Notes under the pieces: generated by a model
What the model was told of the DNA's origin: nothing
Databases searched by the model: none
Seen by the model: only the letters and a program-made list of their open reading frames with translations
Shown here: in pieces, positions 15,556 through 61,900 of the stretch
Position numbering within the stretch: the stretch's first letter is position 1
How the letters are laid out: every line of letters starts with the position of its first letter
Translations under genes and position numbers: made by a program
DNA from: Myxocyprinus asiaticus
Taxonomy: Eukaryota; Chordata; Actinopteri; Cypriniformes; Catostomidae
Direction of reading: 5' to 3'
Length of the DNA stretch: 64,000 bases
NCBI RefSeq assembly: GCF_019703515.2
Contig: NC_059368.1
Coordinates: forward strand, 34,746,735-34,810,734

Positions 15556-16190
15556 CTCTACTTGTTCTTACCTGAAAGAACACGGGATGAAACCGGCTCA
15601 ACCCGGAGATTGTAAAATCTCGCGAAAGTATTGGGTGTTGCCCAGCCTGCTGCTCTGCAGATGTCTGCTAGAGAGGCGCCATTGGCCAGTTCCCACAAGG
15701 ATGCCACACTCCTTGTAGAGTGTGCTTGAACCCGCAAGGCCAATGCAATGGCGTCCACGATCCAGTGGGCAAGCCTTTGTTTGGAAACAGCGTTCCCTTT
15801 CCGCTGTCCACCACAGCAGACGAAGGCCCAGGAGGACCACGGTGAGATCCCATGAGGGGAAGAGGCATGGCCTGGGAGGATTAAGCCTCCGGGCGCCTTT
15901 GAGGAACCTAATGATCAGGTCGTGCTGTCCAAGGGACTTACCGTCGACTGTGTCGTGGTGAGCCGCTATAGCGGCTACATAAACCTTCAAGTTGGAGGGG
16001 GACAGCCGCCCTTCCAGCCTCTCCTGCAGAAATGAGAGCACTGACCCGACTGCGTATCTCTGGGTGTCTTCGGCTCGGGAAGAACACCAATTCACGAATA
16101 AGCACCGCTTTAGGGCATAAAGCTGCCTGGTAGAGTGAGCTCTGGCTTGAGTGATCGTGTCTACAACTGCTGGTGGTAGACCACTTAGAC
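15556..16190 (-). pseudogene. DIRS tyrosine recombinase (copy 1, internally deleted)
   Basis: The N-terminal part reads ARAHSTRQLYALKRCLFVNW, then LSPSNLKVYVAAIAAHHDTV and LIIRFLKGARRLNPPRPC. It then jumps, at about 15830, to a CGGQRKG-type segment in another frame and ends with QAHSTRSVASLWELA and NTFARFYNLRVEPVSS. The last parts supply the HxxR box and the nucleophilic tyrosine of the family. Compared with copy B at 59808-60640, about 115 residues holding the first catalytic arginine (SIKRVGDLQ) are missing, so this copy cannot catalyse recombination. Confidence 0.8.
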
Positions 16191-17498
16191 CTTCCGCGTC
16201 CCATCCAGGGGCCAGACATGGAGATTCCAGAGGTCTGGGTGCAGATGCCAGAGGGTGCCCTGTCCCTGAGAAAGAAGGTCCTTCCTCAGGGGAATCTGCC
16301 AGGGAGGTGCTGTCGCAAGGAGCGTGAGGTCTGAGAACCAAGTCTGAGTGGGCCAGTACGGGGCCATGAGGGTGACTTGTTCCTCGTTCTCCCTGACCTT
16401 GGACAAGGTCTGTGCAAGAAGGCTCACTGGGGGGAACGCGTATTTGTGCAGCCCCTGGGGCCAGCTGTGTGCCAGCGTGTCTGTCCCGAGGGGGGCTCCC
16501 GTCAGGGAATACCATAGCGGGCAGTGGGAGGATTCCCAGGAAGCGAACAGGTCTACCTTTGCTTTGCCGGATCGACTCCAAATCAGCTGGACTACCTGGG
16601 GGTTGAGTCTCCACTCTCCACTGAGTGTTGCCTGCCGCGACAGCGTGTCCGCTGTGGCGTTGAGGCTGCCCGGGATATGAGTGGGCTGTAGCGACCTCAG
16701 CCACTGCTGACTCCAGAGGTGGAGATGGCGGGCGAGTTGCGACATGCGACAAAAGCGTACTCCGCCTTGGCGAATTATATATGCTACTGTCGCTGTGTTG
16801 TCGGAGCGGACCAACACTTGATTGCCCTGGATCAACGGCAATAGCCTCCACAGGGCGAGTAGTACAGCCAGAAACTCTAGGCAGTTGATGTGCCAACCCA
16901 GTCACAGTCCTGACCAGGAACCGGCTACTGCGTGCCCGTTGCACACAGCGCCCCAGCCCAGTTTGGAGGCATCTGTGGTGACCACGACACGTCTGCACAC
17001 TTGCTGTAGGGGAACTCCTGCCCATAGAAATGCAAGGTCTGTCCAAGGGTTGAATAAGTGGCGGCAGAGCGGCATGATAGCTACGCGATGTGTGCCGCGG
17101 TGCCATGCCCGTCTCAGGACTCGAGTCTGAAGCCAGTACTGAAGCGGTCTCATATGCATCAACCCAAGCGGCGTGACTGCCGCTGAGGAAGCCATATGCC
17201 CCAGGAGCCTCTGGAAGTGTTTCAGTGGAACCGCTGTCCTCCACCTGAATGACTTCAGGCAGTTCAGCACCGACTGCATGCGCTTGCTTGTGAGGCGCGC
17301 TATCATTGAGACCGAGTCTAACTCCATGCCGAGGAAAGAGATGCTCTGAACTGGGGAGAGCTTGCTCTTTTCCCAGTTGACCTGAAGCCCTAGATGGCTG
17401 AAGTGCCTGAGCACCAAATCCCTGTTCGTGCACAGCAACTCTCGAGAGTGTGCTAGAATCAGCCAGTCGTCATGATAGTTGAGTATGTGGACGCCCAC
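16185..17498 (-). pseudogene. DIRS reverse transcriptase and RNase H (partial)
   Basis: Two overlapping minus-strand frames cover this. The first (16902-17498) opens with the RT catalytic motif ILNYHDDWLILAHS, a DIRS-type YxDD box, then the thumb segment VNWEKSKLSP and FLGMELDS. It continues into RNase H with VVTTDASKLGWGAVCNG. The second (16185-16841) supplies VRSDNTATVAYI, IPGSLNATADTLSR and the region after RNase H (KVDLFASWES, WPTQTWFSDL) that is typical of DIRS elements. RT motifs before the YxDD box are absent, and a frameshift separates the frames. Confidence 0.85.
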
Positions 17499-17505
17499 TT
17501 CCCTT

Positions 17506-19418
17506 AATGTGTAATCCCTTCAGTGTGTTACTCCACTGACTTTATGAAAGACATCAGTCATACCTTTTGTAAAATAGAATGTTGCTAACATGTTGCTAGA
17601 CAAGGACCACATGTTTTTCTGTTTCATCAGGAACGTATGTGGTAGTTGTTAGCGTCTTGTTGGAAATTGTTTTTTTTGTTGTTGTTATTTTTGGTAACAT
17701 GGTGGCTTCAAAATTCACATTTGAGGTACAGTATGACTGTGTGTAATTTATGTTGTAGAACAAAACGCCCAAGTATCTTCAAGTAAGGTTAGTTTATTTT
17801 TCAAGTAAGGATAGTTTACCTTAAAGTCTTGGCAACAAATTAGCTACTGAACATTTTCTTTGTTAATGGCCAGGGAAAAATATACAGTGCACCAAACACA
17901 TGTTGACCTTTTGTGACAATTTGCACAATTTTGTCACATTAAATGGGGTAAGATGGGGTAACAATGGAATGTACTATTTCATGTGAACATCTACACTTGC
18001 ATTAAAGAGAGTTTTATAAGCTTTTCAGTAACATTTAATAAGTAAAACAATTATGAAGGAGGCACAAAATGATTCATGAAACAAAAAATGGAAAAGATAA
18101 AATACAGAAATATTAAAGCATTGTTTTGGCCAACAAATATTGTAATTGATAAAGTGCGTACATTTATGTCATTTAAAACCCATGAGTTTTTTGAGACTTG
18201 ACCTTTGATCAAGACTCACAACATTAATGAACTAATTATACAGGCTTTGATCCATTATACACATTTATCAGTGTTACATATAAGCTGGTCATACATAACC
18301 AGCAGTCCTGCTCTGAGCCAGTATACATAACTTGCAACAAATTGTTACTCTGGGATATTCAACTCAACGCCTCTCTGGTGATGTAGATCTGGGGCAAAGA
18401 GGAAGATGCTGATTAATGGTGTAAACCATCCACCAAGGCATATTAAACCTTTTGCTTAGGGAAACACTTAATGTTATAATATTGTGCTGCCCTTCATCAT
18501 ACACATATCAGTACTTTCTCTGTACTCACCCACATATTACTCACAGACATTAAAATGATGATGCATGCTTTTAAAGGGAAAGTGTGCAATTTCTATGCCA
18601 CTGACATCACCAAATTGAAATGCAAAGATCATTTCTGATTTCAAAACGTTTTCCTGAATATCTAAAAAATGATACACTTCACCTTGTACCGTAGTTTGAG
18701 ATTAATTTCATCTAAACAGATAGAAACATTGGTGGACAGTAACAACATATTTTTAGGTCATTTTTGGGTAATTTCTTCATTACAGGTGACCCTTGCTTTA
18801 ATGAATGCCAGTATGGTTTTATAATATGAATAATCATATAATTAAAAATAATCATACTGTACCATTGCATTCACATCAAGTTGCATTAGTTTAACCATAT
18901 TTACTACTATTGTATTGTTCAGTTCGGTGCTGTCATTTTACAGTTTAAATGTAGAAAATGCATTGTATGTTTGCAAAAAAGTTTTAATTGAATAGTAGCA
19001 ATTAAAGGTCATTATATTTCAGGTCAGCACTACATCAGAGACCATCTGGGAAAAGAGATCAGGTCCTGGTCACCAGGTGATACCCATAACACTTCTGATG
19101 AAGAAGACTTGAAACACAAATACACTCTGGAAAGTGCCAGGCAGTCGGAGGTTGCCTCCTACTACTTTTAATCAAGTTACTATTTAAAAGGAATAATTTT
19201 ACTTTGACTGGAGTAATATTTCATCAGGTTATCTGTACATTTACTTTTACTCAACTCGGGATTAGTGTACTTTGTCCACCACTGGATAGCAATCAGGTGG
19301 GATTGAAAATGAAATACTCTCAAATTATTATAAACTCACATCGAAATTGAATGAGTGTAAAAACATGTCACTTGTAAAGCCCAAGACCAGTGGGCAGTCT
19401 ACATTTGCATTTAGGTCT
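17506..19418. other. Unassigned sequence
   Basis: The first 220 bp may be the remainder of the element whose arms are at 12599 and 17723. A segment at 18574-18620 starting AAAGGGAAAGTGTGCAATTT resembles the MITE ends at 27445 and (inverted) 31760-31800. No gene or RNA was recognised. Confidence 0.45.
17723..17797. repeat. Right arm of inverted repeat flanking LINE and DIRS
   Basis: Contains ATTTATGTTGTAGAACAAAA and ATCTTCAAGT, the inverse of the left arm at 12599-12668, with a few substitutions and short gaps. See the left arm for interpretation. Confidence 0.6.
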
Positions 19419-35454: not shown

Positions 35455-36719
35455 GATGACGTGGCCCGGAATTCCATCTGGACCCGTGGCTTTACAGATA
35501 TTCACCCGTCGGAAGGATCGTTACATCTGCTACAGAGACGGAGAGTGAACTAACCTCTGTAGCGCCGGCCTCGAGAGCTCTCTCCACGAGGGCGGTGTTA
35601 TTTCCCTCGAAACGTGCATAAAAAGTATTTAGCTCATCCGGGAGAGAGGCAGAGGTGTTCACGGTGGAGTTTTTATTCCCTTTAAAGTCCATGATGATGT
35701 TAATTCCTTGCCACATGCTTCTAGAGTTGGTGGTGTTAAACTGTCCTTCAATCTTGTTCCTGTACTGGCGTTTTGCTGCTCTGCGTTCCTGGAATTAAAA
35801 GCAGAGGTCTGTGCATTAAATGCCGCGCGAACATCGCTATTAATCCAAGGTTTCTGGTTCGGGTTTATCCGTATTGTTTTGGTTGGAACAACATCCTCTA
35901 CGCACTTTCTGATGAAATCAGCGTAAAGCTCGATGTCGTCATCAGAGGCGGACCGGAACATCTCCCAGTCCACATGATCAAAACAGTCTTGTAGCATAGA
36001 GTCTGATTGGTCCGACCAGCACTGGATCGTTCTGAGGGTGGGTGCTTCCTGTTTCAGTTTCTGCCTGTAAGCAGGCAGAAGCAGAATGGAAGAGTGGTCC
36101 GATTTGCCAAATGGTGGGCAGGGGAGGGATTTGTAGCCATCCCGGAAGGGTCCAAAACCTGGTCCCCTCCTGTGTTAAAACTGATGTGTTGGTGGTATTT
36201 TGGTGCGATTGATTTGAGATTGGCTTTGTTAAAGTCCCCGGTCACAATGAACATGGCCTCAGGGTACAGGGTTTTCTGCTTGCTTATAATCCCATACAGT
36301 TCCTTGAGTGCCCGGTCTGTGGCGGCTTGTGGCGGAATGTACACAGCTGTGATAATGACTGCTGTGAATTCCCTCAGTAGCCAGAATGGTCGACACAGAA
36401 GCATGAGAAATTCCAGATCAGGAGAGCAGAAAGACTTGACAGAACGTACATTCCTCTGATCACACCAGGATTTGTTGATCATAAAACATACACCACCACC
36501 TCTGCTTTTACCTGAGAGGTCTTTCGCTCTGTCCGCTCGGTGCACGGAGAACCCCGCGGGTTCGATGGCTGAGTCTGGAATCTCCGCAGACATCCAAGTT
36601 TCTGTAAGGCAGATAATGCAGCAGTCCCTTGTCTCTCGTTGGAAAGAGATCCGTGCTCTCAGCTCACAGAGCTTGTTGTCCAGAGACTGAACATTTGCCA
36701 GTAGAATACTGGGTAGCAA
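35455..36719 (-). pseudogene. Jockey/CR1-like LINE endonuclease region
   Basis: Minus strand. The first frame (36054-36719) is an APE-type endonuclease: NVQSLDNKLCELRARI, CLTETWMS with the catalytic Glu, SRGGGVCFMI, then IITAVYIPPQA and FIVTGDFNKANL. A second frame (35659-35997) and a third (35492-35716) cover the linker, PNQKPWINSDVRAAF and FYARFEGNN. The last recognisable block is KATGPDGIPG at about 35460-35500, the entry to the RT domain. RT and the 3' end are missing, which is unusual because LINEs normally lose the 5' end. Frameshifts separate the frames. Exact clade is uncertain (Rex1 or CR1-related). Confidence 0.8.
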
Positions 36720-37429
36720 TCTTAAATTGCTCTAAGAATTAGCACTCTCATAAAAAGACCCAGCACACGGTCATAGCACTGTGCTTACAAAAATAGAGCC
36801 CTTCATCTCATGTGAGTGCTCATGATTTTAAATATATGTTTCAAAATTACAATTAATTTCTTTAAGAGTAAATGTGCTCCATATGGTAACATATAAATGA
36901 ACTGGATTCGTTCAAGTCAAAAACTGAATCAACCAGACTACATTAGGTTACACCAAGAATACCTTTTCTACAAGGAATGTAGAAATATCTCTTTAACTTA
37001 ATAATTGCAGCTTACCACTTTTGACAGTGTACACCCCAACATATGCTTCAAAGGTGAATGGACCAGATATTTACAGTACAGTACAGCACTGTATAACATA
37101 ACTCAGCATTAAGGATGCCATTAAAATCACATTCTTCCATCAGATTAATTACCAAAAAGATTTATTCCATTTCTTACTTGTTTCTAACAATTTGTCTCTG
37201 TTTAAATGATGTTAATAAGCAGAGTGTGGGTTCACTCTCCAGGCCTGTAATGGACTTCAGATCCACCCACCCACTCAACTAACACTAATGAGCAGAAATC
37301 TCTAGTCCCCAAAGGTTTCAGTCATGGAGGCCTGTTGCTAGGAGACAGACATTTAAACAGAAAGTGTGCCCTAAACTTTATCGATGACTGAAGGAATGTT
37401 CTGTTATATACATTAAAAATGTATGCATC
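36720..37429. other. Unassigned sequence
   Basis: No gene or repeat recognised between the LINE fragment and the miniature LTR element. Confidence 0.45.
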
Positions 37430-37617
37430 TATAACAGCAGCCAGCTGATACATGCTGTGCATTGTGTGTAAAACCTCACTCCCCTGGCCTCAAGAGGCGC
37501 ACTAGCGACTGATGCTGGGGGCTGTATACTTTAGCCTCCTCATTAGTGCACCCGCCTCCCATGCCGGAGACGCCGGTTTGAATTTTGCTTGGAGTGGGTC
37601 GAGCAGGACTGGTTACA
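37430..37617 (+). repeat. TRIM 5' LTR with tRNA-like segment
   Basis: Ends GACTGGTTACA. Its first base pair set is TATAAC, one change from TGTAAC. The tRNA-like part spans about 37531-37595, with a D-arm-like TTAGTGCACCCGCC, an anticodon-arm-like CTCCCATGCCGGAG and a degenerate box B GGTTTGAATTT (37575-37585). Confidence 0.6.
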
Positions 37618-37618
37618 T

Positions 37619-37636
37619 TGGTGCTGTGACCCGGAT
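37619..37636 (+). promoter_or_regulatory. Primer binding site, tRNA-His-like
   Basis: TGGTGCTGTGACCCGGAT begins one base after the left LTR. It matches the complement of the eukaryotic tRNA-His 3' end (TGGTGCCGTGACTCGGAT) at 16 of 18 positions, judged from memory of that tRNA. Confidence 0.6.
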
Positions 37637-37643
37637 GGGCGTG

Positions 37644-37659
37644 AGGTTTAGGGGGTGAG
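37644..37659 (+). promoter_or_regulatory. Polypurine-tract-like sequence
   Basis: AGGTTTAGGGGGTGAG directly precedes the right LTR. It is purine-rich but interrupted by four T residues, so it is only a moderate match to a plus-strand primer. Confidence 0.45.
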
Positions 37660-37847
37660 TGTAACGGCAGCCAGCTGGTACGTGCTGTGTAGTGTGTGTA
37701 AAACCTCACTCCCCTGGCCTCAAGATGCGCACTAGCGATTGACGCTAGGGGCTGTAGCCTTTAGCCTCCTTGTTAGTGCACCCACCTCCCATGCCGGAGA
37801 TGCTGGTTTGAATCCGCCTCAGAACAGGTCGAGCAGGACTGGTTACA
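37660..37847 (+). repeat. TRIM 3' LTR with tRNA-like segment
   Basis: Same length as the left LTR, with TGTAAC...GTTACA ends. Box B GGTTTGAATCC (37805-37815) matches the Pol III consensus GGTTCGAATCC at 10 of 11 positions. The stretch 37781-37817 resembles the anticodon and T arms of tRNA-Gly(CCC) by eye. The A-box region (37762-37780) is more degenerate. Confidence 0.6.
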
Positions 37848-38673
37848 TATCTGCTATTCTGAGGGTAGTTTTGTGCTGTGGCCATAACAGAAACAAAATT
37901 CTTTTGAGAAGATAAGTTTGCCTCTTCTCTCCTGTAGCTGCACTGGCACATTATATTGCAACTCTCTCGCAACTGGATCCATCATTGTCATTTTTTTGGC
38001 ACTTCTTCCCATCGGACATTTGCAGTTTTGAGTTTGAGTGTTTGTCTGGCAGTTCAACAACTCTTTGCTTTAAACTGTTTGTTTATCATACATAAACGAA
38101 ATGTTGAAAGGTTTCGGCAAAGTGTCTCCTCAGCTGTCTTCAGAATTATTTGGTGAAATACAGGAGTGTTTGCCACCAGTACAGCAATTCTGTCTTTTAA
38201 GCCCCATTAGCTGTTAAGAGGGTGGCTTAGTTTTGGTCACAGGCAAAGAATGACAATTAGCATTAACATTTGCAATTCAGATAGTTTTAATGCATGAAAG
38301 AGAGAGAGTGGCGGTTCAACACTCTTCCATAAACAGTTGCTGGATTCATGTGTCCAGTAATGACTCTTTCAGTCCGACACCTTCAGCTCCTAATAAGTAC
38401 TTGTGATTAAGCAGCAAGAGAGCCAATTGATTTTAAGATATTTCAACCTCATATAATATGTAAAGATTAAGATTATTAAATTTGAATCCAAATCAGTGTT
38501 ATTTACAATTAGTAGTGAGTTTCATTTAAAACAAAAGCTGAATATGAAGACAAATGATCTCTTTACAGATATTAGCAAAAGTTGCATTGCCCCCCTTGAT
38601 TTACCTTGTATCATCCCTGCAACATCTGATGCCCAAAGACCAACGCTGAAACATGATCAAGGGGGACCAAAAC
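37848..38673. other. Unassigned sequence
   Basis: No gene or repeat recognised. Overlapping small ORFs on both strands (37745-38156) have no domains. Confidence 0.45.
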
Positions 38674-39230: not shown

Positions 39231-40471
39231 GACTATATTGCCAAAAGTATTCGCTCACCCATCCAAATAATTGAATTCAGGTGTTCCAATCACTTCCATG
39301 GCCACAGGTGTATAAAATGAAGCACCTAGGCATGCAGACTGCTTCTACAAACATTTGTGAAAGAATGGGCTGCACTCAGGAGCTCAGTGAATTCCAGCGT
39401 GGTACTGTGATAGGATGCCACCTGTGCAACAAGTCCAGTCGTGAAATTTCCTCCAACTAAATATTCCACAGTCAACTGTCAGTGGTATTATAACAAAGTG
39501 GAAGTGATTGGAATGACAGCAACTCAGCCACGATGTGGTAGGCCATGTAAAATGACAGAGCGGGGTCAGCGGATGCTGAGGCGCATAGTGCGCAGAGGTC
39601 GCCAAATTTCTGCAGAGCCAATCGCTACAGACCTCCAAAGTTCACGTGGCCTTCAGATTAGCTCAAGAACAGTGCGTAGAGAGCTTCATGGAATGGGTTT
39701 CCATGGCCGAGCAGCTGCATCCAAGCCATACATCACCAAGTGCAATGCAAAGCATAGGATGCAGTGGTGTAAAGCACGCTGCCACTGGACTCTAAAGTAG
39801 TGGAGACGCGTTCTCTGGAGTGACGAATCATGCTTCTCCATCTGGCAATCTGATGGACGAGTCTGGGTTTGGCAGTTGCCAGGAGAACGGTACTTGTCTG
39901 ACTGCATTGTGCCAACTGTGAAGTTTGGTGGAGGGGGGATTATGGTGTGGGGTTGTTTTTGAGGAGCTGGGCTTGGCCCCTTAGTTCCAGTGAAAGGAAC
40001 TCTGAATGCTTCAGCATACCAAGAGATTTTGGACAATTCCATGCTCCCAACTTTGTGGGAACAGTTTGGGGATGGCCCCTTTCTGTTCCAACATGACTGT
40101 GCACCAGTGCACAAAGCAAGATCCATAAAGACATGGATGAGCGAGTCTGGTGTGGAAGAACTTGACTGGCCTGCACAGAGTCCTGACCTCAACCCGACAG
40201 AGCACCTTTGGGATGAATTAGAGCGAAGACTGCGAGCCAGGCCTTCTCGTCCAACATCAGTGTCTGACCTCACAAATGCGCTTCTGGAAGAATGGTTAAA
40301 AATTCTCATAAACACACTCCTAAACCTTGTGGAAAGCCTTCCCAGAAGAAGCTGTTATAGCTGCAAAGGGTGGGCCAACGTCATATTAAACCCTATGGAT
40401 TAAGAATGGGATGTCACTTAAGTTCATATGCATCTAAAGGCAGATGAGCGAATACTTTTGGCAATATAGTG
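39231..40471 (+). mobile_element. Near full-length Tc1-like transposon, 1241 bp
   Basis: Left end GACTATATTGCCAAAAGTAT and right end ATACTTTTGGCAATATAGTG are inverted, with TA on both sides (39229-39230 and 40472-40473). Length and layout fit an ordinary Tc1 element with a single intronless transposase gene on the plus strand. The gene is broken, so the copy is inactive, but it is the most complete transposon in the window. Confidence 0.9.
39365..40403 (+). pseudogene. Tc1-like transposase, stop- and frame-disrupted
   Basis: Starts at MGCTQELSEFQRGTVIG, a typical N-terminus 130 bp inside the left end. The first helix-turn-helix is cut by a stop and frame change near 39460. The next frame holds CGRPCKMTERGQRMLRRIV (hook and second domain) and SSRTVRRELHGMGF. 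A stop precedes [15 protein letters not shown] (first catalytic Asp), and another follows VWGCF. The last frame has FQHDCAPVHKARSIKTW (second Asp) and SPDLNPTEHLWDELERR (final Glu). All three DDE residues are retained; at least three disabling changes remain. Confidence 0.9.
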
Positions 40472-42154: not shown

Positions 42155-43505
42155 TTAGGTCTGTACCAGTCCTTTGTGAGACTTGAGAGAGAATGTCTGT
42201 GAGAGGTGAGTATTTGTAGCATCCTTGATTAACTGTGTGATTGTGTGCAGGTGTTCGTGATCAGAAGTCCAGAGAGCCCGGCGTGGGCGTGACAGAAGGC
42301 CCTGAGCCCCCAATGCCGTGAACGACCTCATCCACGCTGCGCTGGACAATCGGGATGTTCCGCATGGAAGTTGGTAAGCAGGGCTGGGTCCAGGATCCCT
42401 CCAGCGCCGGGAGTCCAGGATGTCCCATATAGAGTACACATGACCGTCCTCCAGGAGCAGTGGCAGAGGGGGATCACAACCCTCACCAGACTCTGGGGGA
42501 AGAGAGGGAGAAGGATGGTAAGGTTTTAGAAGAGAAATATGAAATGAGGGTACAATACGGTAATGAGGGGGTAGTTGTAGACGATATTTGACAGCATTTA
42601 TCTGTTCTAAGATGGTGAAGGGACCAGTGTAGCAGGGACTTAACTTGCAGCATGGCAGCCGGAGTTCAGTGTCTCGGGCGGAGAGCCAGACATTCTGCCC
42701 GTGCTGGTACTGGGGTGTTGCTGAGCGCTGAGCATCAGCCTGGCTCTTCTGTTGATGGACGGCCCGTTGAAGATGGATGTCACCACTGTCCCAGACCCTC
42801 TCACTCTCCCTGAACCAATGGTCTACTGCTGGGACGTCCGAAGGTTCACCCGACCAAGGGAAGAGAGGTGGTTGGAAACCGAGTATGCACTGGAATGGAG
42901 TGATGCTGGAGGCTGGTTGGCGAAGGGAATTCTGAGTGTATTCATCCCAAGGAAGGTAGCGACTCCATTGGTACAGATGGCAATGGCTGTAAGTTCGTAG
43001 GGAACGGCCTATTTCTTGAATCTTCCTCTCTGTTTGCCCATTTGACTGCCGGTGGTAGCCGGAGGAGAGGCTGATGGACATGAAGCGTGCCTTCCAAACC
43101 TTTGAGATGAATTGAGGACCACGGACAGACACTATGTCTTCGGGGAAGCCATAATTTCGGAAGACATGATAGAACAGTGTTTCCGTGGTCTCGAGGGCAG
43201 TGGGCAGGCCCTTTAATGGAACCACCCGACAGACATTGGAGAAGCGATCTACTATGAGCAGCACGCAAATGTAACCATTGTAGGAAGGTAAGTCTGTAAT
43301 GAAGTCCACTCCTAGGTGTGACCAGGGTCGGCGAGGAACGGGCAACGGGAAGAGATGCTGGTTGGTAGGTGATGAGGAACTTTAGATATGGCACAGTCTG
43401 GGCAAGCTTTGATGAAGTGCTGGATGTCGCTGGACATACTGGCCACCAAAAGCGGTTCTGAAGGAACGAGAAGGTCTGTGCTGTGGCAGGATGTCCAGAG
43501 CCCAA
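42155..43505 (-). pseudogene. Gypsy integrase with chromodomain remnant
   Basis: The upstream frame (42942-43505) contains HPATAQTFSFLQNRFWW and the cysteines of the HHCC zinc-binding domain region. The long frame (42155-43345) opens [19 protein letters not shown] with the first catalytic Asp. The second Asp is replaced by Val in [14 protein letters not shown], and the Glu is kept in [16 protein letters not shown]. The GPF/Y-type segment [16 protein letters not shown] follows. The chromodomain-like [17 protein letters not shown] is then frameshifted. Chromodomains direct chromovirus insertion to modified chromatin. The D-to-V change alone would abolish integration. Confidence 0.85.
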
Positions 43506-43689
43506 AGATGAATGAAGGGTGTTGACCAGTTGGTTTCTCAGCCCCGCTGGAATGTAGGTGCGATTAGGTGGACATCCAGTGGGAGCTGGGTCGGTGTTAC
43601 TAGCTTAAGTGATGTGCTCATCCAGGGTCTATTGGATGGGGTTGATGATGATGGTTGGAGGGAGAATAGGTTCAGGAGTTGAGATGACT

Positions 43690-44520
43690 GGCTCGGAGGA
43701 GTGAATTCAAGAGAGAGCATCGGCTTATCTTGGACCCTGGATGACAGGTGACAGTGAAGGTATTCCTGGTTCTGATGATCTGTGATGACCTGGAACGGGT
43801 GACGGTAACCCTCAAGCCAGTGGCACCACTCCTCAAGCGCCAGCTTGATGGCCAGTAGCTCCCGGTTGCCAATCTGCTGCTGAGGGTTTTCGGGAGAAGA
43901 AAGCACATGGGAATAGTTTGGGAGGAGTACCTTGCCACAGAGAAAGCACCGCCCCTTCGCCAGTGGTTGAGGCGTCAACTTCTACCATGAAGAAGAGCTC
44001 GGGATTTGGATGGCGGAGAATGGGTGCCGAGGTGAACATTTCCTTAAAGGTTTGGAATGCCATGGAAGCTTTCAGAGACCATGGAAGAGTTCTAGGTTTA
44101 TGTCGGAGGAGGGAAGTTAACGGAGCAACGAAGGAGATTAAATTTCTGATAAAGTGCCTATAGAAATTTGCAAATCCCAGGAAGCATTGGAGCTTCTTCA
44201 TTGTGGTGGGTTGTGACTAAGAGAGAATGGCTTGCACCTTCCATGGATCCATCTGCACACCAGTGGGGCTGATGGTGTAATCCAAGAACTGTATGGAGGA
44301 CTGATGGAAGGAACACTTCTCCACTATGAGCAACAACGGATGGTTACGGAGACGTTGAAGAACAAGTTTTACGTGTTGACTGTGAGTTGCCAGACTGGTG
44401 GAGTAGATGAGTATATCATCAGTGTAGATGATGACAAACTGGTGGAGATACTCTCGGAAGATCTCATTCATGAAGCCATAGAAGACTGAACGGGCGTTGG
44501 CCAGCCCATACGGTAATGTA
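43690..44520 (-). pseudogene. Gypsy reverse transcriptase end and RNase H
   Basis: Starts within RT at MNEIFREYLHQFVIIYTDD, where YTDD stands for the usual YIDD catalytic box, and continues LVLQRLRNHPLLLIVEKCSF and FLDYTISPTGVQM. The next frame (43833-44201) gives [17 protein letters not shown] and the RNase H motif [16 protein letters not shown] third (43538-43978) gives [19 protein letters not shown] and [13 protein letters not shown]. Two frame changes and one stop separate the parts. Confidence 0.85.
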
Positions 44521-44560
44521 CTCCTCCATGGCTTTCTGCTTTGGAAGAGTATGACTATGT

Positions 44561-44583
44561 GCAGGTGTTAATGATCAGAAGTC

Positions 44584-47154: not shown

Positions 47155-47380
47155 CAGTTGAAATCAGAAGTTTACATACACCTTAGCTACATACATTTAA
47201 ACTCAGTTTTTCACAGTTCTTGACATTTAATCGTACAAAACATTCCGTCTTAGGTCAGTAAGGAACACTACTTTATTTTAAGAATGTGAAATGTCAGATT
47301 AATAGTAGAGAGAATGATTTATTTCAGCTTTTATTTCTTTGATCACATTCCCAGTGGGTTAGAAGTTTACATACACTTTG

Positions 47381-48330
47381 TTAGTATTTGGTAGCATTGC
47401 CTTTAAATTGTTTAACTTGGGTCAAACATTTTGTGTAGCCTTCCACAAGCTTCTCACAATAAGTTGCTGAAATTTTGGCCCATTCCTCCAGACAGAACAG
47501 GTGTAACTCAGTCAGGTGTGTAGGCCTCCTTGCTCGCACACACTTTTTCAGTTCTGCCCACAAATTTTCTATCGGATTGAGGTCAGGGCTTTATGATGGC
47601 CACTCCAATACCTTGAGTTTGTTGTCCTTAAGCCATTTTTCCACAACTTTGGAGGTACGCTTGGGGTCATTGTCCATTTGGAAGATCCATTTGTGACTGA
47701 GCTTTAACTTCCTGGCTGATGTCTTGAGGTGTTTCTTCATGATGTGAAGTGTACCAGTCCCTCCTGCAGCAAAGCACCCAAACAACATGATGCTGCCATC
47801 CCCATGCTTCACAGTTGGGATGGTGTTCTTCGGCTTGCAAGCCTCACCCTTTTTCCTCCAAACATAATGTTCATGATATTCATTATGGCCAAACAGTTCA
47901 ATTTTTGTTTCATCAGATCAGAGGATATTTCTCCTAAAAGTAAGATCTTTGTCCCCATGTGCACTTGCAAACTGTCAGAATCCTTGCTGAGCAGCCTTTC
48001 AGGTTATGTCGATATAGGACTCGTTTTACTATAGATACTTGTCTACCTGTTTCCTCCAGCATCTTCACAAGGTCCTTTGCTGTTGTTCTGGGATTGATTT
48101 GCACTTTTTGCACCAAACTACATTCATCCCTTGGAGACAGAGTGCGTCTCCTTCCTGAGCAGTATGATGGCTGCGTGGTCCCATGGTGTTTATACTTGCG
48201 TACTGTTGTTTGTACAGATGAACGTTGTACCTTCAGGTATTTGGAAATTGCTCCCAAGGATGAACCAGATTTGTGGAGGTCCACAATTATTTTTCTGAGG
48301 TCTTGGCTGAGTTTGAAGGTAGGACTTAAA
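47381..48330 (-). pseudogene. Sleeping Beauty-like transposase, fragmented
   Basis: The N-terminal frame (47934-48284) reads VDLHKSGSSLGAISKYLKVQ with RSSVQTTVRKYKHHG, the paired-like first helix-turn-helix. SGRRRTLSPRDECSLVQKVQ and NPRTTAKDLVKMLEE then form the second domain. The middle frame (47591-47812) has GSIMLFGCFAAGGTGTL and FQMDNDPKRTSKVVEKWL with the second catalytic Asp. The last frame (47381-47563) begins at WAELKKCVRARRP, just after the final Glu segment. The first Asp region near 47880 is degraded. Stops and frameshifts prevent function. Confidence 0.85.
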
Positions 48331-48404
48331 ATACATCCACAGGTACAGGTCCAATTCAGTACACCTCCTATCAGAAGCTAATTGGCTAATTGTCTAGAGG
48401 CTTG

Positions 48405-48589
48405 TGTAACCAGTCCTACTCAACCCACTCCGAGCGGGAATTGAACCGGTGTCTCTGGCATGAGAGGCGGGCGCGCTACAAGGAGGCTAAAGGCTGCAGC
48501 CTCTAGCATCAGTCACTAGTGCGCCTCTTGAGGCCAGGGGAGTGAGGTTTACACACTGCACAGCTACCTACCAGCTGGCTACCGTTACA
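48405..48589 (-). mobile_element. Solo LTR of the TRIM-like element
   Basis: Reverse-oriented 185-bp relative of the LTRs at 37430 and 37660, beginning TGTAAC and ending GTTACA on the plus strand. CTTG flanks both sides (48401-48404, 48590-48593), a clean 4-bp target duplication. Removing the insert and one CTTG restores a continuous Tc1 sequence (AGGCTTGACATAATT). Minus-strand box B is GGTTCAATTCC at 48437-48447. A solo unit with a target duplication argues for LTR biology or SINE-like retroposition, not segmental duplication. Confidence 0.75.
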
Positions 48590-48769
48590 CTTGACATAAT
48601 TTTCTGGAATTTTCCAAGCTGCATAAAGGCAAAGTTAACTTAGTGTATGTAAACTTCTGACCCACTGGAATTGTGATATAGTCAATTAAAAGTGAAACAG
48701 TCTGTCTGTATACAGTTGTTGGAAAAATTACTTTTGTAATGCACAAAGTAGTTGTCCTAAACGACTTGC

Positions 48770-59807: not shown

Positions 59808-60640
59808 TTACCTGTTCATACCTGACAAAACACGGGATGAAACCGGCTCAACCCGGAGATTGTAGAACCTCGCAAAGTTGTTGGGTGTTGCCCAGCCCGC
59901 TGCTCTGCAGATGTCTGCTAGAGAGGTGCCATTGGTCAGGGCCCAGGAGGCCGCCACACCCCTGGTAGAATGGGCTCGTAGCCCCACGGGGGACGGCACA
60001 TGCTGAGTGTGATATGCCATCACGATGGCATCGATGACCCAATGGGTGATACTCTGTTTGGAGACAGTGCTTCCTTTCCGCTGTCCGCCAAAGCAGACAA
60101 AGAGCTGCTCGGAGTTTCTAAAGCTCTGCGTGCGATCCAAATAGATGCGTAAAGCGCACACCAGACACAGCAACACAATGGCTGGGTCTGCCTCCTCCTG
60201 GGGCAGCGCTTACAGGTTCACCACCTGATCCCTAAATGGGGTCATGGGAACCTTGGGCACATAGCCCGGTCGGGGTCTTAGGATCACGTGAGAGTAGCCC
60301 GGGCTGAACTCCAGGCACGTTTTGGTGACAGAGAACACCTGCAGGTCCCCTACCCTCTTGATGGAAGTGAGCGCAGTCATGAGGGCAGTCTTCAGAGAGA
60401 GTGCCTTTAGCTCAGATGACACCAACAGCTCGAAGGGAGCTCCCCGTAGTCCCCGAAGGACTACAGAGAGATCCCATGAGGGAATGAGGCACGGTCTGGG
60501 GGGGTTCAACCTCCTAGCGCCTCTCAAGAACCTGATGATCAAGTCGTGCTTCCCCAAATACTTACCATCCACTGCATAGTGATGTGCCAAAATGGTGGCT
60601 ACATACACCTTTAACGGATGCCTGGTGAACTGAATCGCAC
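59808..60640 (-). pseudogene. DIRS tyrosine recombinase (element B, nearly complete)
   Basis: The N-terminal side begins inside the core-binding domain (KVYVATI, KHDLIIRFLRGARRLNPPRP). It continues with FELLVSSELKALSLKTALMT and the first catalytic arginine in SIKRVGDLQVFSVTKTC. A single TAA at about 60208 follows VVNL. The next frame then reads VCALRIYLDRTQSFRNSEQL, FVCFGGQRKGSTVSKQ, the HxxR box in LRAHSTRGVAAS, and the tyrosine in NNFARFYNLRVEPVSSRV. These enzymes insert DIRS DNA through a covalent tyrosine intermediate. All key residues are present; the loss is one nonsense codon and the missing start. Confidence 0.85.
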
Positions 60641-60659
60641 AGCGGTTCTTCTCGTTCCT

Positions 60660-61900
60660 GGGTCGCCCGTCTCAGGGACGCTTCGAAGCCATTCTTGGGT
60701 TCTTGGTGGCCGGCCGTGAGACGGGTGGCATCTGCTTCCTGCGGTAGGCTCCACGCCGGGGCCGGGCCGTGGGGGCGGGCTGCGGCAGAGCCGGTACTGT
60801 TGCTGCAGGAGGTCGCCCTTTGCAACGAGCAGACGGGGTGCGGGGTCTTGAGCCGCGCTGATGCAGGATATGTTGAATGGCCTCCATCTGCTGCTTCACC
60901 GCCGAGAACTGCTGGGCAAAGTCCTCGAAGGTGTCGCTGAACAGGCCAATCTGGGAGATGGGGGCATCAAGGAACCGTGCCTTTTCAGCCGCTCTCATCT
61001 TGACCAGGTTGATACAAAGGTGGTCCTGGACCACCAGGGTGGACATCGCCTGCCCGAGAGACTGCGCCGTGACCTTCGTCGCCCGGAGAGTAAGGTTGGT
61101 CGCCGAGCGCATTTCCTGTATCAATCCCCGGTCAGAACTACCCTCATGCAGTTCTTTCAGTGCCTTGGCTTGGTGTACCTGCAGGAGAGCCATGGCATGC
61201 AGGGCGGAGACGGCTTGTCCAGTGGCGCCATAGGCCTTAGCCGTCAGAGATGAAGTGAACCTACAAGCCCTGGACGGGAGCTTCGGGCGCCCGCGCCAGG
61301 TGGTAGAACTCTGGTGGTAGCGAGTGTCTTATCCACATGGGGGATCCTCGAATAGCCCCTGGCCGCCCCACCATCGAGGGTAGTGAGGGCGGGGGAGCTG
61401 AGAGATCGGAATCGGGTCGTGAAAGGTGCCCTCCACAATCTTGTCAGCATCACGTGCACCTCCGGGAAGAAAGGAACTGGGGCTGGGCACAGCCGTGAGC
61501 GGCGCTCCGAGCTGAGGAACCAATCGTCGAGCCGCGAGGGTTCAGGGGAGAGTGGAGGGTTCCACTCTAACCTGACACTCGCGGCTGCCTGGGCAAGCAT
61601 GTCAGCCAGCTCCACGTCGGTCTGCGACTGGGCGACCATACCCAAGGGAGGAAGCCTAGCCGAAGCCTCCGCGTCAGACTGAACGAGCCCACTCTCCGAT
61701 GCTGCGCTTGAGAGCTCATCATCTTCCCGGGCTCCGAATAAGAGGTTGAACTCGCCCTGAGATGAGCCGGCGGTCTCATCTGAGAGCCCGACCGGGGTAA
61801 GCGAGCGTGCTGAGGAATGGGAGGTCCGTGGGGGGATACCCGTTGGAGGTGCTCCATTGAGGTCCCCAAATCGCCCCCAGTGCTGACCGCCACGGCCTCA
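60660..61900 (-). pseudogene. DIRS gag (element B)
   Basis: The N-terminal frames (61567-61893, 61244-61645) give DVELADMLAQAAASVRLEWN, SRLDDWFLSSERRSR and PVPFFPEVHVMLTRLWRAPF, then SPALTTLDGGAARGYSRIP. The C-terminal frame (60672-61193) is MALLQVHQAKALKELHEGSS and LTLRATKVTAQSLGQAMSTL, then AAEKARFLDAPISQIGLFSD. A glutamine-rich segment and a basic Pro/Arg-rich tail finish it. Length and order fit a DIRS Gag. It is split by frameshifts and joins the recombinase at about 60640. Confidence 0.65.

What the first reader, a model, noticed from the sequence alone, without database searches (positions are those of the whole stretch)
37430..37847. Minimal TRIM-like retrotransposon whose LTRs carry a tRNA-like Pol III promoter
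Seen: two 188-bp direct repeats, GTTACA right ends, 42 bp between them, an 18-base stretch matching a tRNA-His primer binding site at 16 positions one base inside the left repeat, and a purine-rich stretch directly before the right repeat. Each repeat has a box B (GGTTTGAATCC in the right one) and arms resembling tRNA-Gly(CCC). Known: plant Cassandra TRIMs carry a 5S-type Pol III promoter in their LTRs. Inference: this is an independent animal case using a tRNA-like promoter, with one of the shortest internal regions possible.
Basis: partly seen in the sequence, partly recalled or inferred. Interest (0 to 1): 0.85.

Follow-up and report, generated by a model that had tools for sequence, protein, structure and literature searches.

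The report
Fish mini-retrotransposon with tRNA-like LTRs
This is an old, decayed copy of a very short non-coding retrotransposon whose ends contain a piece resembling a transfer RNA gene; it is real, but a group of such elements was described in fish and other organisms in 2024, so it is ordinary for its kind.

Summary
Two 188-bp repeats (37430-37617, 37660-37847; 162/188 identical) enclose 42 bp that begin with a 16/18 match to a tRNA-His primer binding site and end in a purine-rich tract. Ends are TGTAAC...GTTACA (TATAAC in the left copy). The flanks hold a 4-bp target duplication with one mismatch (CATC/TATC). A second family member, a 185-bp solo LTR on the minus strand (48405-48589), has a perfect 4-bp duplication (CAAG) inside a Tc1-like transposon. 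This is LTR-type integration, not a SINE or satellite.

The LTR resembles tRNA around the anticodon/T-arm region and box B, but no tRNA model match or cloverleaf is recovered, so Pol III transcription stays inferred. Two leads not seen in that paper's text: no Pol III terminator shared by the copies on the sense strand, and a marginal antisense tRNA-Lys-like stretch. The source genome could not be searched; copy number and host are untested.

The parts
37426..37429 (.). left target-site duplication CATC
   Evidence: flank letters; pairs with TATC at 37848-37851, 3 of 4 identical; chance of 3 or more of 4 is 0.0585
37430..37617 (+). 5' LTR, 188 bp, TATAAC...GTTACA
   Evidence: 162 of 188 identical to the 3' LTR
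37532..37585 (+). tRNA-like segment of the 5' LTR (placed by register with the 3' LTR); box B decayed to GGTTTGAATTT
   Evidence: best score of the whole LTR to recalled tRNA-Gly(CCC) 38, 0 of 1000 shuffles; box A plus box B pair not better than shuffles, 933 of 1000
37618..37659 (+). internal region, 42 bp, too short to code for a protein of the element
37619..37636 (+). [quoted passage not shown]
37650..37659 (+). polypurine-like tract AGGGGGTGAG, 9 of 10 purines
   Evidence: sequence
37660..37847 (+). 3' LTR, 188 bp, TGTAAC...GTTACA
37762..37773 (+). box A-like TAGCCTCCTTGT, 9 of 12
   Evidence: joint box A plus box B score reached by 28 of 1000 shuffles
37805..37815 (+). box B GGTTTGAATCC, 10 of 11
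   Evidence: only GGTTYGANTCC in the window
37848..37851 (.). right target-site duplication TATC
37702..37752 (-). antisense stretch resembling the 5' two thirds of tRNA-Lys(CTT); tentative
   Evidence: score 30, 9 of 3000 shuffles; 34 and 32 (1 and 5 of 3000) in the left and solo copies; not corrected for 8 tRNAs and 2 strands
48405..48589 (-). solo LTR of the same family, 185 bp, TGTAAC...GTTACA
   Evidence: 84.2% and 84.8% identical to the left and right LTR over 184 aligned positions, 5 gap columns
48401..48404 (.). target-site duplication of the solo LTR (CAAG read on the minus strand)
   Evidence: identical to 48590-48593; chance of 4 of 4 is 0.0049
48590..48593 (.). target-site duplication of the solo LTR (CAAG read on the minus strand)

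Best explanation
It is an old, non-autonomous LTR retrotransposon of the TRIM type with a tRNA-derived segment in its LTRs, that is, a Helenus element (Kojima 2024), most likely of the group related to zebrafish LTR-11_DR. Likely mode of action, inferred: Pol III starts near position 90 of the 5' LTR, just upstream of box A, and runs through the 42-bp internal region into the 3' LTR. tRNA-His primes minus-strand synthesis on the 18-base site. Strong-stop DNA jumps to the 3' LTR, and the purine tract primes the plus strand. An autonomous element, probably Gypsy-type, supplies reverse transcriptase and integrase and inserts the copy with a 4-bp duplication. LTR-LTR recombination leaves solo LTRs. 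Shown here: LTRs, primer site, purine tract, 4-bp duplications, a solo LTR. Not shown: Pol III transcription (which I put at about 0.55) and the partner. The confidence given is for the identity and LTR-type mobility.
For: LTR-42-LTR anatomy, primer site and purine tract at the correct ends. 4-bp duplications at both loci, 3 of 4 and 4 of 4. Solo LTR with exact LTR ends nested in a Tc1-like transposon whose inverted repeats lie at 47322-47383 and 48636-48697. tRNA-Gly-like segment and box B; in a scan of the whole window in 188-bp pieces the three LTRs hold the top scores to tRNA-Gly, 42, 38 and 34, the next other place 28. The published group has the same combination: tRNA-like LTRs, His/Leu/Lys primers in vertebrates, 4-bp duplications in animals, Ostariophysi among its hosts.
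Against: No Rfam tRNA match up to E 10 in the right and solo LTRs, nor up to E 1 over both loci. ARAGORN finds no tRNA in the window and, with lowered thresholds, gives weak and discordant calls in 2 of 3 LTRs (tRNA-Arg, tRNA-Ser) and none in the right one. RNA folds are no better than shuffles, z -0.21, 1.52 and 0.54. The box A plus box B pair of the left copy is not better than shuffles, 933 of 1000. Only three LTRs and one internal region were examined.
Confidence: 0.88

Rival explanations
1. A TRIM of the same identity but transcribed by Pol II; the tRNA-like segment is a fossil of an old SINE insertion into the LTR and no longer serves as a promoter. It differs from the best explanation only in the transcription step.
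For: No tRNA model match, no cloverleaf, decayed box B in one of three copies, no T4 run on the sense strand in two of three LTRs or in the internal region.
Against: Box B is recognisable in 2 of 3 old copies, and with box A reaches a score met by 28 and 25 of 1000 shuffles; Kojima reports box A and B conservation across Helenus families. Decay of old copies is expected under either reading.
Confidence: 0.35
2. A tRNA-derived SINE that happens to lie as a tandem dimer.
For: Small size, tRNA-like segment, single unit elsewhere in the window.
Against: No A-rich or simple tail at either locus. The unit has TG...CA ends with 6-bp inverted termini, 4-bp duplications, and a primer site and purine tract only in the spacer; the solo unit lacks the 42-bp spacer exactly, as LTR recombination predicts.
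Confidence: 0.03
3. The fragment is a piece of a tandem array (satellite) rather than an insertion.
For: Tandem Repeats Finder reports period 230, 1.8 copies; tandem arrays of LTR-11_DR are reported in zebrafish. The repeat finder extends the pair 8 bases past the LTR end.
Against: The similarity past the LTR end is only 5 of 8 bases (read), the unit ends coincide with those of the solo LTR and are flanked by near-matching 4-bp duplications.
Confidence: 0.04

Closest known systems
Helenus (Kojima 2024, PMC10886601), especially LTR-11_DR and relatives in Ostariophysi
   Same: TRIM with tRNA-like segment in the LTRs, tRNA-His among vertebrate primer types, primer site and purine tract, 4-bp duplications in animals, total length within the stated 311-1263 bp (418 here); solo LTRs are described for fungal members.
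   Different: No difference was established. Sequence identity to LTR-11_DR, its internal length and its exact tRNA segment could not be compared (consensus and supplement not available). The paper aligns fish Helenus to tRNA-Val(CAC) (figure legend); here the score to recalled tRNA-Gly(CCC) is higher than to Val in 3 of 3 LTRs, with tRNA-Asp close behind in the solo copy (42 against 40), so the isotype is not settled.
Cassandra (plant TRIM with 5S-type LTRs; passages seen)
   Same: Non-autonomous TRIM with a Pol III-type small-RNA segment in the LTR.
   Different: 5S instead of tRNA-like; Cassandra has conserved Pol III terminators, whereas no sense-strand T4 run is shared between the copies here; plant hosts.
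Other animal TRIMs: bivalve biv-TRIM (PMC6934838, passages seen); ant PbTRIM (PMC3532108) and cestode TRIM (PMC4558846), both seen as search listing and start of abstract only
   Same: Short LTR-type elements without coding capacity.
   Different: biv-TRIM has 202-218 bp repeats, a 77-80 bp internal domain and no unambiguous primer site; the internal region here is 42 bp with a clear tRNA-His site.
HAmo SINE of cyprinid fish (PMC2873951, PMC2653535; search listing and start of abstracts only)
   Same: Short interspersed repeat of cyprinids; tRNA-derived (recalled).
   Different: A SINE with a partner LINE; sequences were not compared here.

Membership tests
TRIM | under 1000 bp, two direct terminal repeats, no coding capacity | tested here: met
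   418 bp, 188-bp repeats, 42-bp internal region; no frame of 100 aa or more overlaps the element
TRIM | primer binding site next to the 5' LTR | tested here: met
   16 of 18 to tRNA-His at offset 1
TRIM | purine tract before the 3' LTR | tested here: met
   AGGGGGTGAG, one T interruption
TRIM | short fixed target-site duplication | tested here: met
   4 of 4 at the solo LTR, 3 of 4 at the full copy; two loci only
Helenus | tRNA-derived sequence inside the LTR, around boxes A and B | tested here: met
   similarity to tRNA-Gly beats shuffles in three of three LTRs; but box A is weak (9 of 12), box B is decayed in the left copy, and no covariance-model match appears
Helenus | 4-bp target duplication in animals | tested here: met
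Helenus, LTR-11_DR group | sequence similarity to the LTR-11_DR consensus | not testable with these tools
   no Repbase library is among the tools; supplement look-ups capped at 0
Helenus, LTR-11_DR group | host in Ostariophysi | not tested
   host of the window not identified; the genome search unanswered
TRIMp3 | transcription by RNA polymerase III | not testable with these tools
   needs RNA or ChIP data
tRNA-derived SINE | A-rich or simple 3' tail and long variable duplications | tested here: not met
   no tail, 4-bp duplications at two loci

The most novel reading that the evidence does not exclude
The LTR carries two tRNA-like pieces head to head: a Gly-like one on the sense strand (from about LTR position 103 rightwards) and a Lys-like one on the antisense strand (from about position 93 leftwards, ending at a TTTT in two of three copies). 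It would be a divergent Pol III promoter that makes a terminated antisense RNA and an unterminated sense genomic RNA, with strand transfer tolerating read-through 3' ends instead of needing the terminator that Cassandra has.
Probability: 0.1. Interest if true: 0.5.

Novelty: already known. Interest (0 to 1): 0.25.

Why it matters
Anatomy and target duplications show that the element moves as an LTR retrotransposon although it looks SINE-like, a warning that tRNA-like repeats in animal genomes need not be SINEs or tRNA genes. The apparent lack of a sense-strand terminator is a concrete, testable difference from Cassandra. The element itself adds one decayed full copy and one solo LTR to a described group.

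Tried and rejected
Rejected: SINE dimer (no tail, LTR ends, 4-bp duplications) and satellite fragment (unit ends coincide with the solo LTR's ends). Also rejected: a functional tRNA gene. ARAGORN found none in the window and Rfam had no match at gathering thresholds. There was no Rfam match at E up to 1 over either locus. At E up to 10 the right LTR gave 3 matches and the solo LTR 2, none of them tRNA and all below their curated cut-offs; the left LTR was not scanned at E up to 10.

Searches that led nowhere: exact patterns from the element in viral contigs and genome contigs, 0 matches each; blastn of the 418-bp element against plasmids and phages, no match. These collections hold no fish genomes by design, so the blanks say little. 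Paper searches: five sequence strings, 0 papers; LTR-11_DR and Helenus + TRIM + retrotransposon, one paper each, Kojima's; zebrafish Pol III / SINE / tRNA genes (15 of 18 papers listed) and TRIM + teleost terms (3 papers), of which only Kojima's was used. No second tRNA-His primer site above 13 of 18 is in the window.

Inverted similarity between the two halves of the LTR was tested with two scorings and is inconsistent: strict 1352, 125 and 1011 of 2000 shuffles reach the observed score; loose 26, 0 and 896 of 2000 (left, right, solo copy). I do not rely on it. Absence of a T4 run is not rare: 63 of 636 window pieces of 418 bp and 137 of 638 of 230 bp lack one.

Full report
Observation. The window holds two direct repeats of 188 bp at 37430-37617 and 37660-37847, 162 of 188 positions identical without gaps, separated by 42 bp. 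The repeat finder draws the pair as 194 bp, 37432-37625 and 37662-37855; the last 8 of these match at only 5 positions (read), so I set the ends by the inverted termini, TGTAAC at the right copy's left end (TATAAC in the left copy) and GTTACA at both right ends. One base into the internal region, 18 bases match the complement of the tRNA-His 3' end (recalled) at 16 positions. The next best on either strand of the 64-kb window is 13 of 18, and 4 of 20,000 shuffled internal regions reached 16 of 18 to any of eight recalled primers at offsets 0-4. The last ten internal bases are AGGGGGTGAG.

Integration signature. The four bases before the left LTR are CATC and the four after the right LTR are TATC. 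Three of four match, which two random 4-mers of the window do, or better, in 5.85% of trials. With 26 of 188 differences between the LTRs, one changed base in the duplication is unsurprising. A second family member lies at 48405-48589 on the minus strand. It is a single 185-bp LTR, TGTAAC...GTTACA, flanked by CAAG on both sides (4 of 4, chance 0.49%). It is nested between the inverted repeats (47322-47383 and 48636-48697) of a Tc1-like transposon, whose frame at 47934-48377 matches the Sleeping Beauty HTH domain. The three LTRs are nearly equidistant: 86.2% between left and right, 84.2% and 84.8% to the solo copy. Most differences are transitions: 20 of 26, 24 of 29 and 23 of 28. This fits old copies of one source sequence, though with three copies and no outgroup the branching is not resolved. 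A solo LTR without the 42-bp spacer is what LTR-LTR recombination leaves.

tRNA-like segment. Against eight recalled human tRNAs, the best sense-strand score of each LTR is to tRNA-Gly(CCC): 38, 34 and 42, reached by 0, 4 and 0 of 1000 shuffles (left, right, solo; maximum over the eight tRNAs). tRNA-Asp comes close in the solo copy (40), so the isotype is not settled. In the right and solo copies, whose alignments were printed, the match covers the anticodon and T arms including box B. A box A-like TAGCCTCCTTGT (9 of 12) lies 43 and 42 bases upstream of box B in the right and solo copies; the joint score is met by 28 and 25 of 1000 shuffles. In the left copy box B has decayed and the pair is not better than shuffles (933 of 1000). 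Against the tRNA reading: no Rfam tRNA match in any of five scans, only weak and discordant ARAGORN calls at lowered thresholds, and RNA folds no better than shuffles. So the segment looks like a decayed promoter-bearing tRNA remnant, not a tRNA gene.

Known status. Kojima 2024 (PMC10886601; Results, Discussion and figure/table sections read, outline and abstract, passages) named TRIMs with tRNA-derived LTR segments Helenus. Members in fish include LTR-11_DR of zebrafish (5575 LTRs, 2618 internal portions, tandem arrays) and relatives across Cypriniformes, a catfish and the milkfish. [quoted passage not shown] What I could test here fits. Sequence identity to LTR-11_DR was not testable. The host of the window was not identified and no relative outside the window was found (in collections that hold no fish genomes by design); the search of the source genome did not complete 8 times. 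That the host is an ostariophysan fish is therefore inference from the match to the published description.

How it works (inferred). Transcription from the tRNA-like promoter would start near LTR position 90. It would cross the primer site, the purine tract and the 3' LTR. The only T4 run on the sense strand of the element (37583) is private to the left copy and, by the majority of the three copies, arose there; the right and solo LTRs and the internal region have none. Cassandra, by contrast, is reported to have conserved terminators and to end its RNA in the 3' LTR. A sense Pol III RNA here would run on to the first T run in the flank (37869 in this copy). Strand transfer would still work, because strong-stop DNA can pair inside the 3' LTR. 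The lack of T4 is not statistically unusual, so this is a prediction, not a finding.

Tentative lead. The reverse complement of LTR positions 43-93 resembles the 5' two thirds of tRNA-Lys(CTT): scores 34, 30 and 32, reached by 1, 9 and 5 of 3000 shuffles for the left, right and solo copies. In a scan of the window the LTRs score highest, but other places reach 28, close to the right copy's 30. Lys was one of eight tRNAs on two strands, and the copies are not independent, so the corrected significance is marginal. On the antisense strand a T4 run lies at the end of this stretch in the left and right LTRs (37473, 37703); the solo copy has only three Ts there (alignment). The terms antisense, opposite and inverted do not occur in the main text of Kojima 2024, and terminator occurs once, about Cassandra.

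Verdict. Interest is low to moderate.

Noticed in passing
47322-48697: Tc1/Sleeping Beauty-like DNA transposon with 62-bp inverted repeats (79% complementary) that carries the solo LTR nested inside it.
   Followed up: partly
42155-44567, minus strand: Broken Gypsy-type pol remnants: Tf2-1-like SH3, a weak integrase-core match and an RNase H-like domain in the frames scanned (42155-43381 and 43538-43981); the frames up to 44567 were not scanned. Same superfamily as the proposed partner of animal Helenus, but no second tRNA-His primer site above 13 of 18 is in the window.
   Followed up: partly
39414-40403: A second Tc1-like transposase remnant: HTH_Tnp_Tc3_2 and DDE_3.
   Followed up: no
15558-17519 and 59808-61897, minus strand: Two G+C-rich blocks with related frames sharing the peptide ADICRAAGWATPN; they recall DIRS-type tyrosine recombinase elements (recalled, not tested). 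The one frame scanned, 15598-17469, had no Pfam match.
   Followed up: no
36054-36731, minus strand: Frame with a weak endonuclease/exonuclease/phosphatase match (E 0.00053, below the curated cut-off), probably a LINE remnant, about 700 bp upstream of the element.
   Followed up: no
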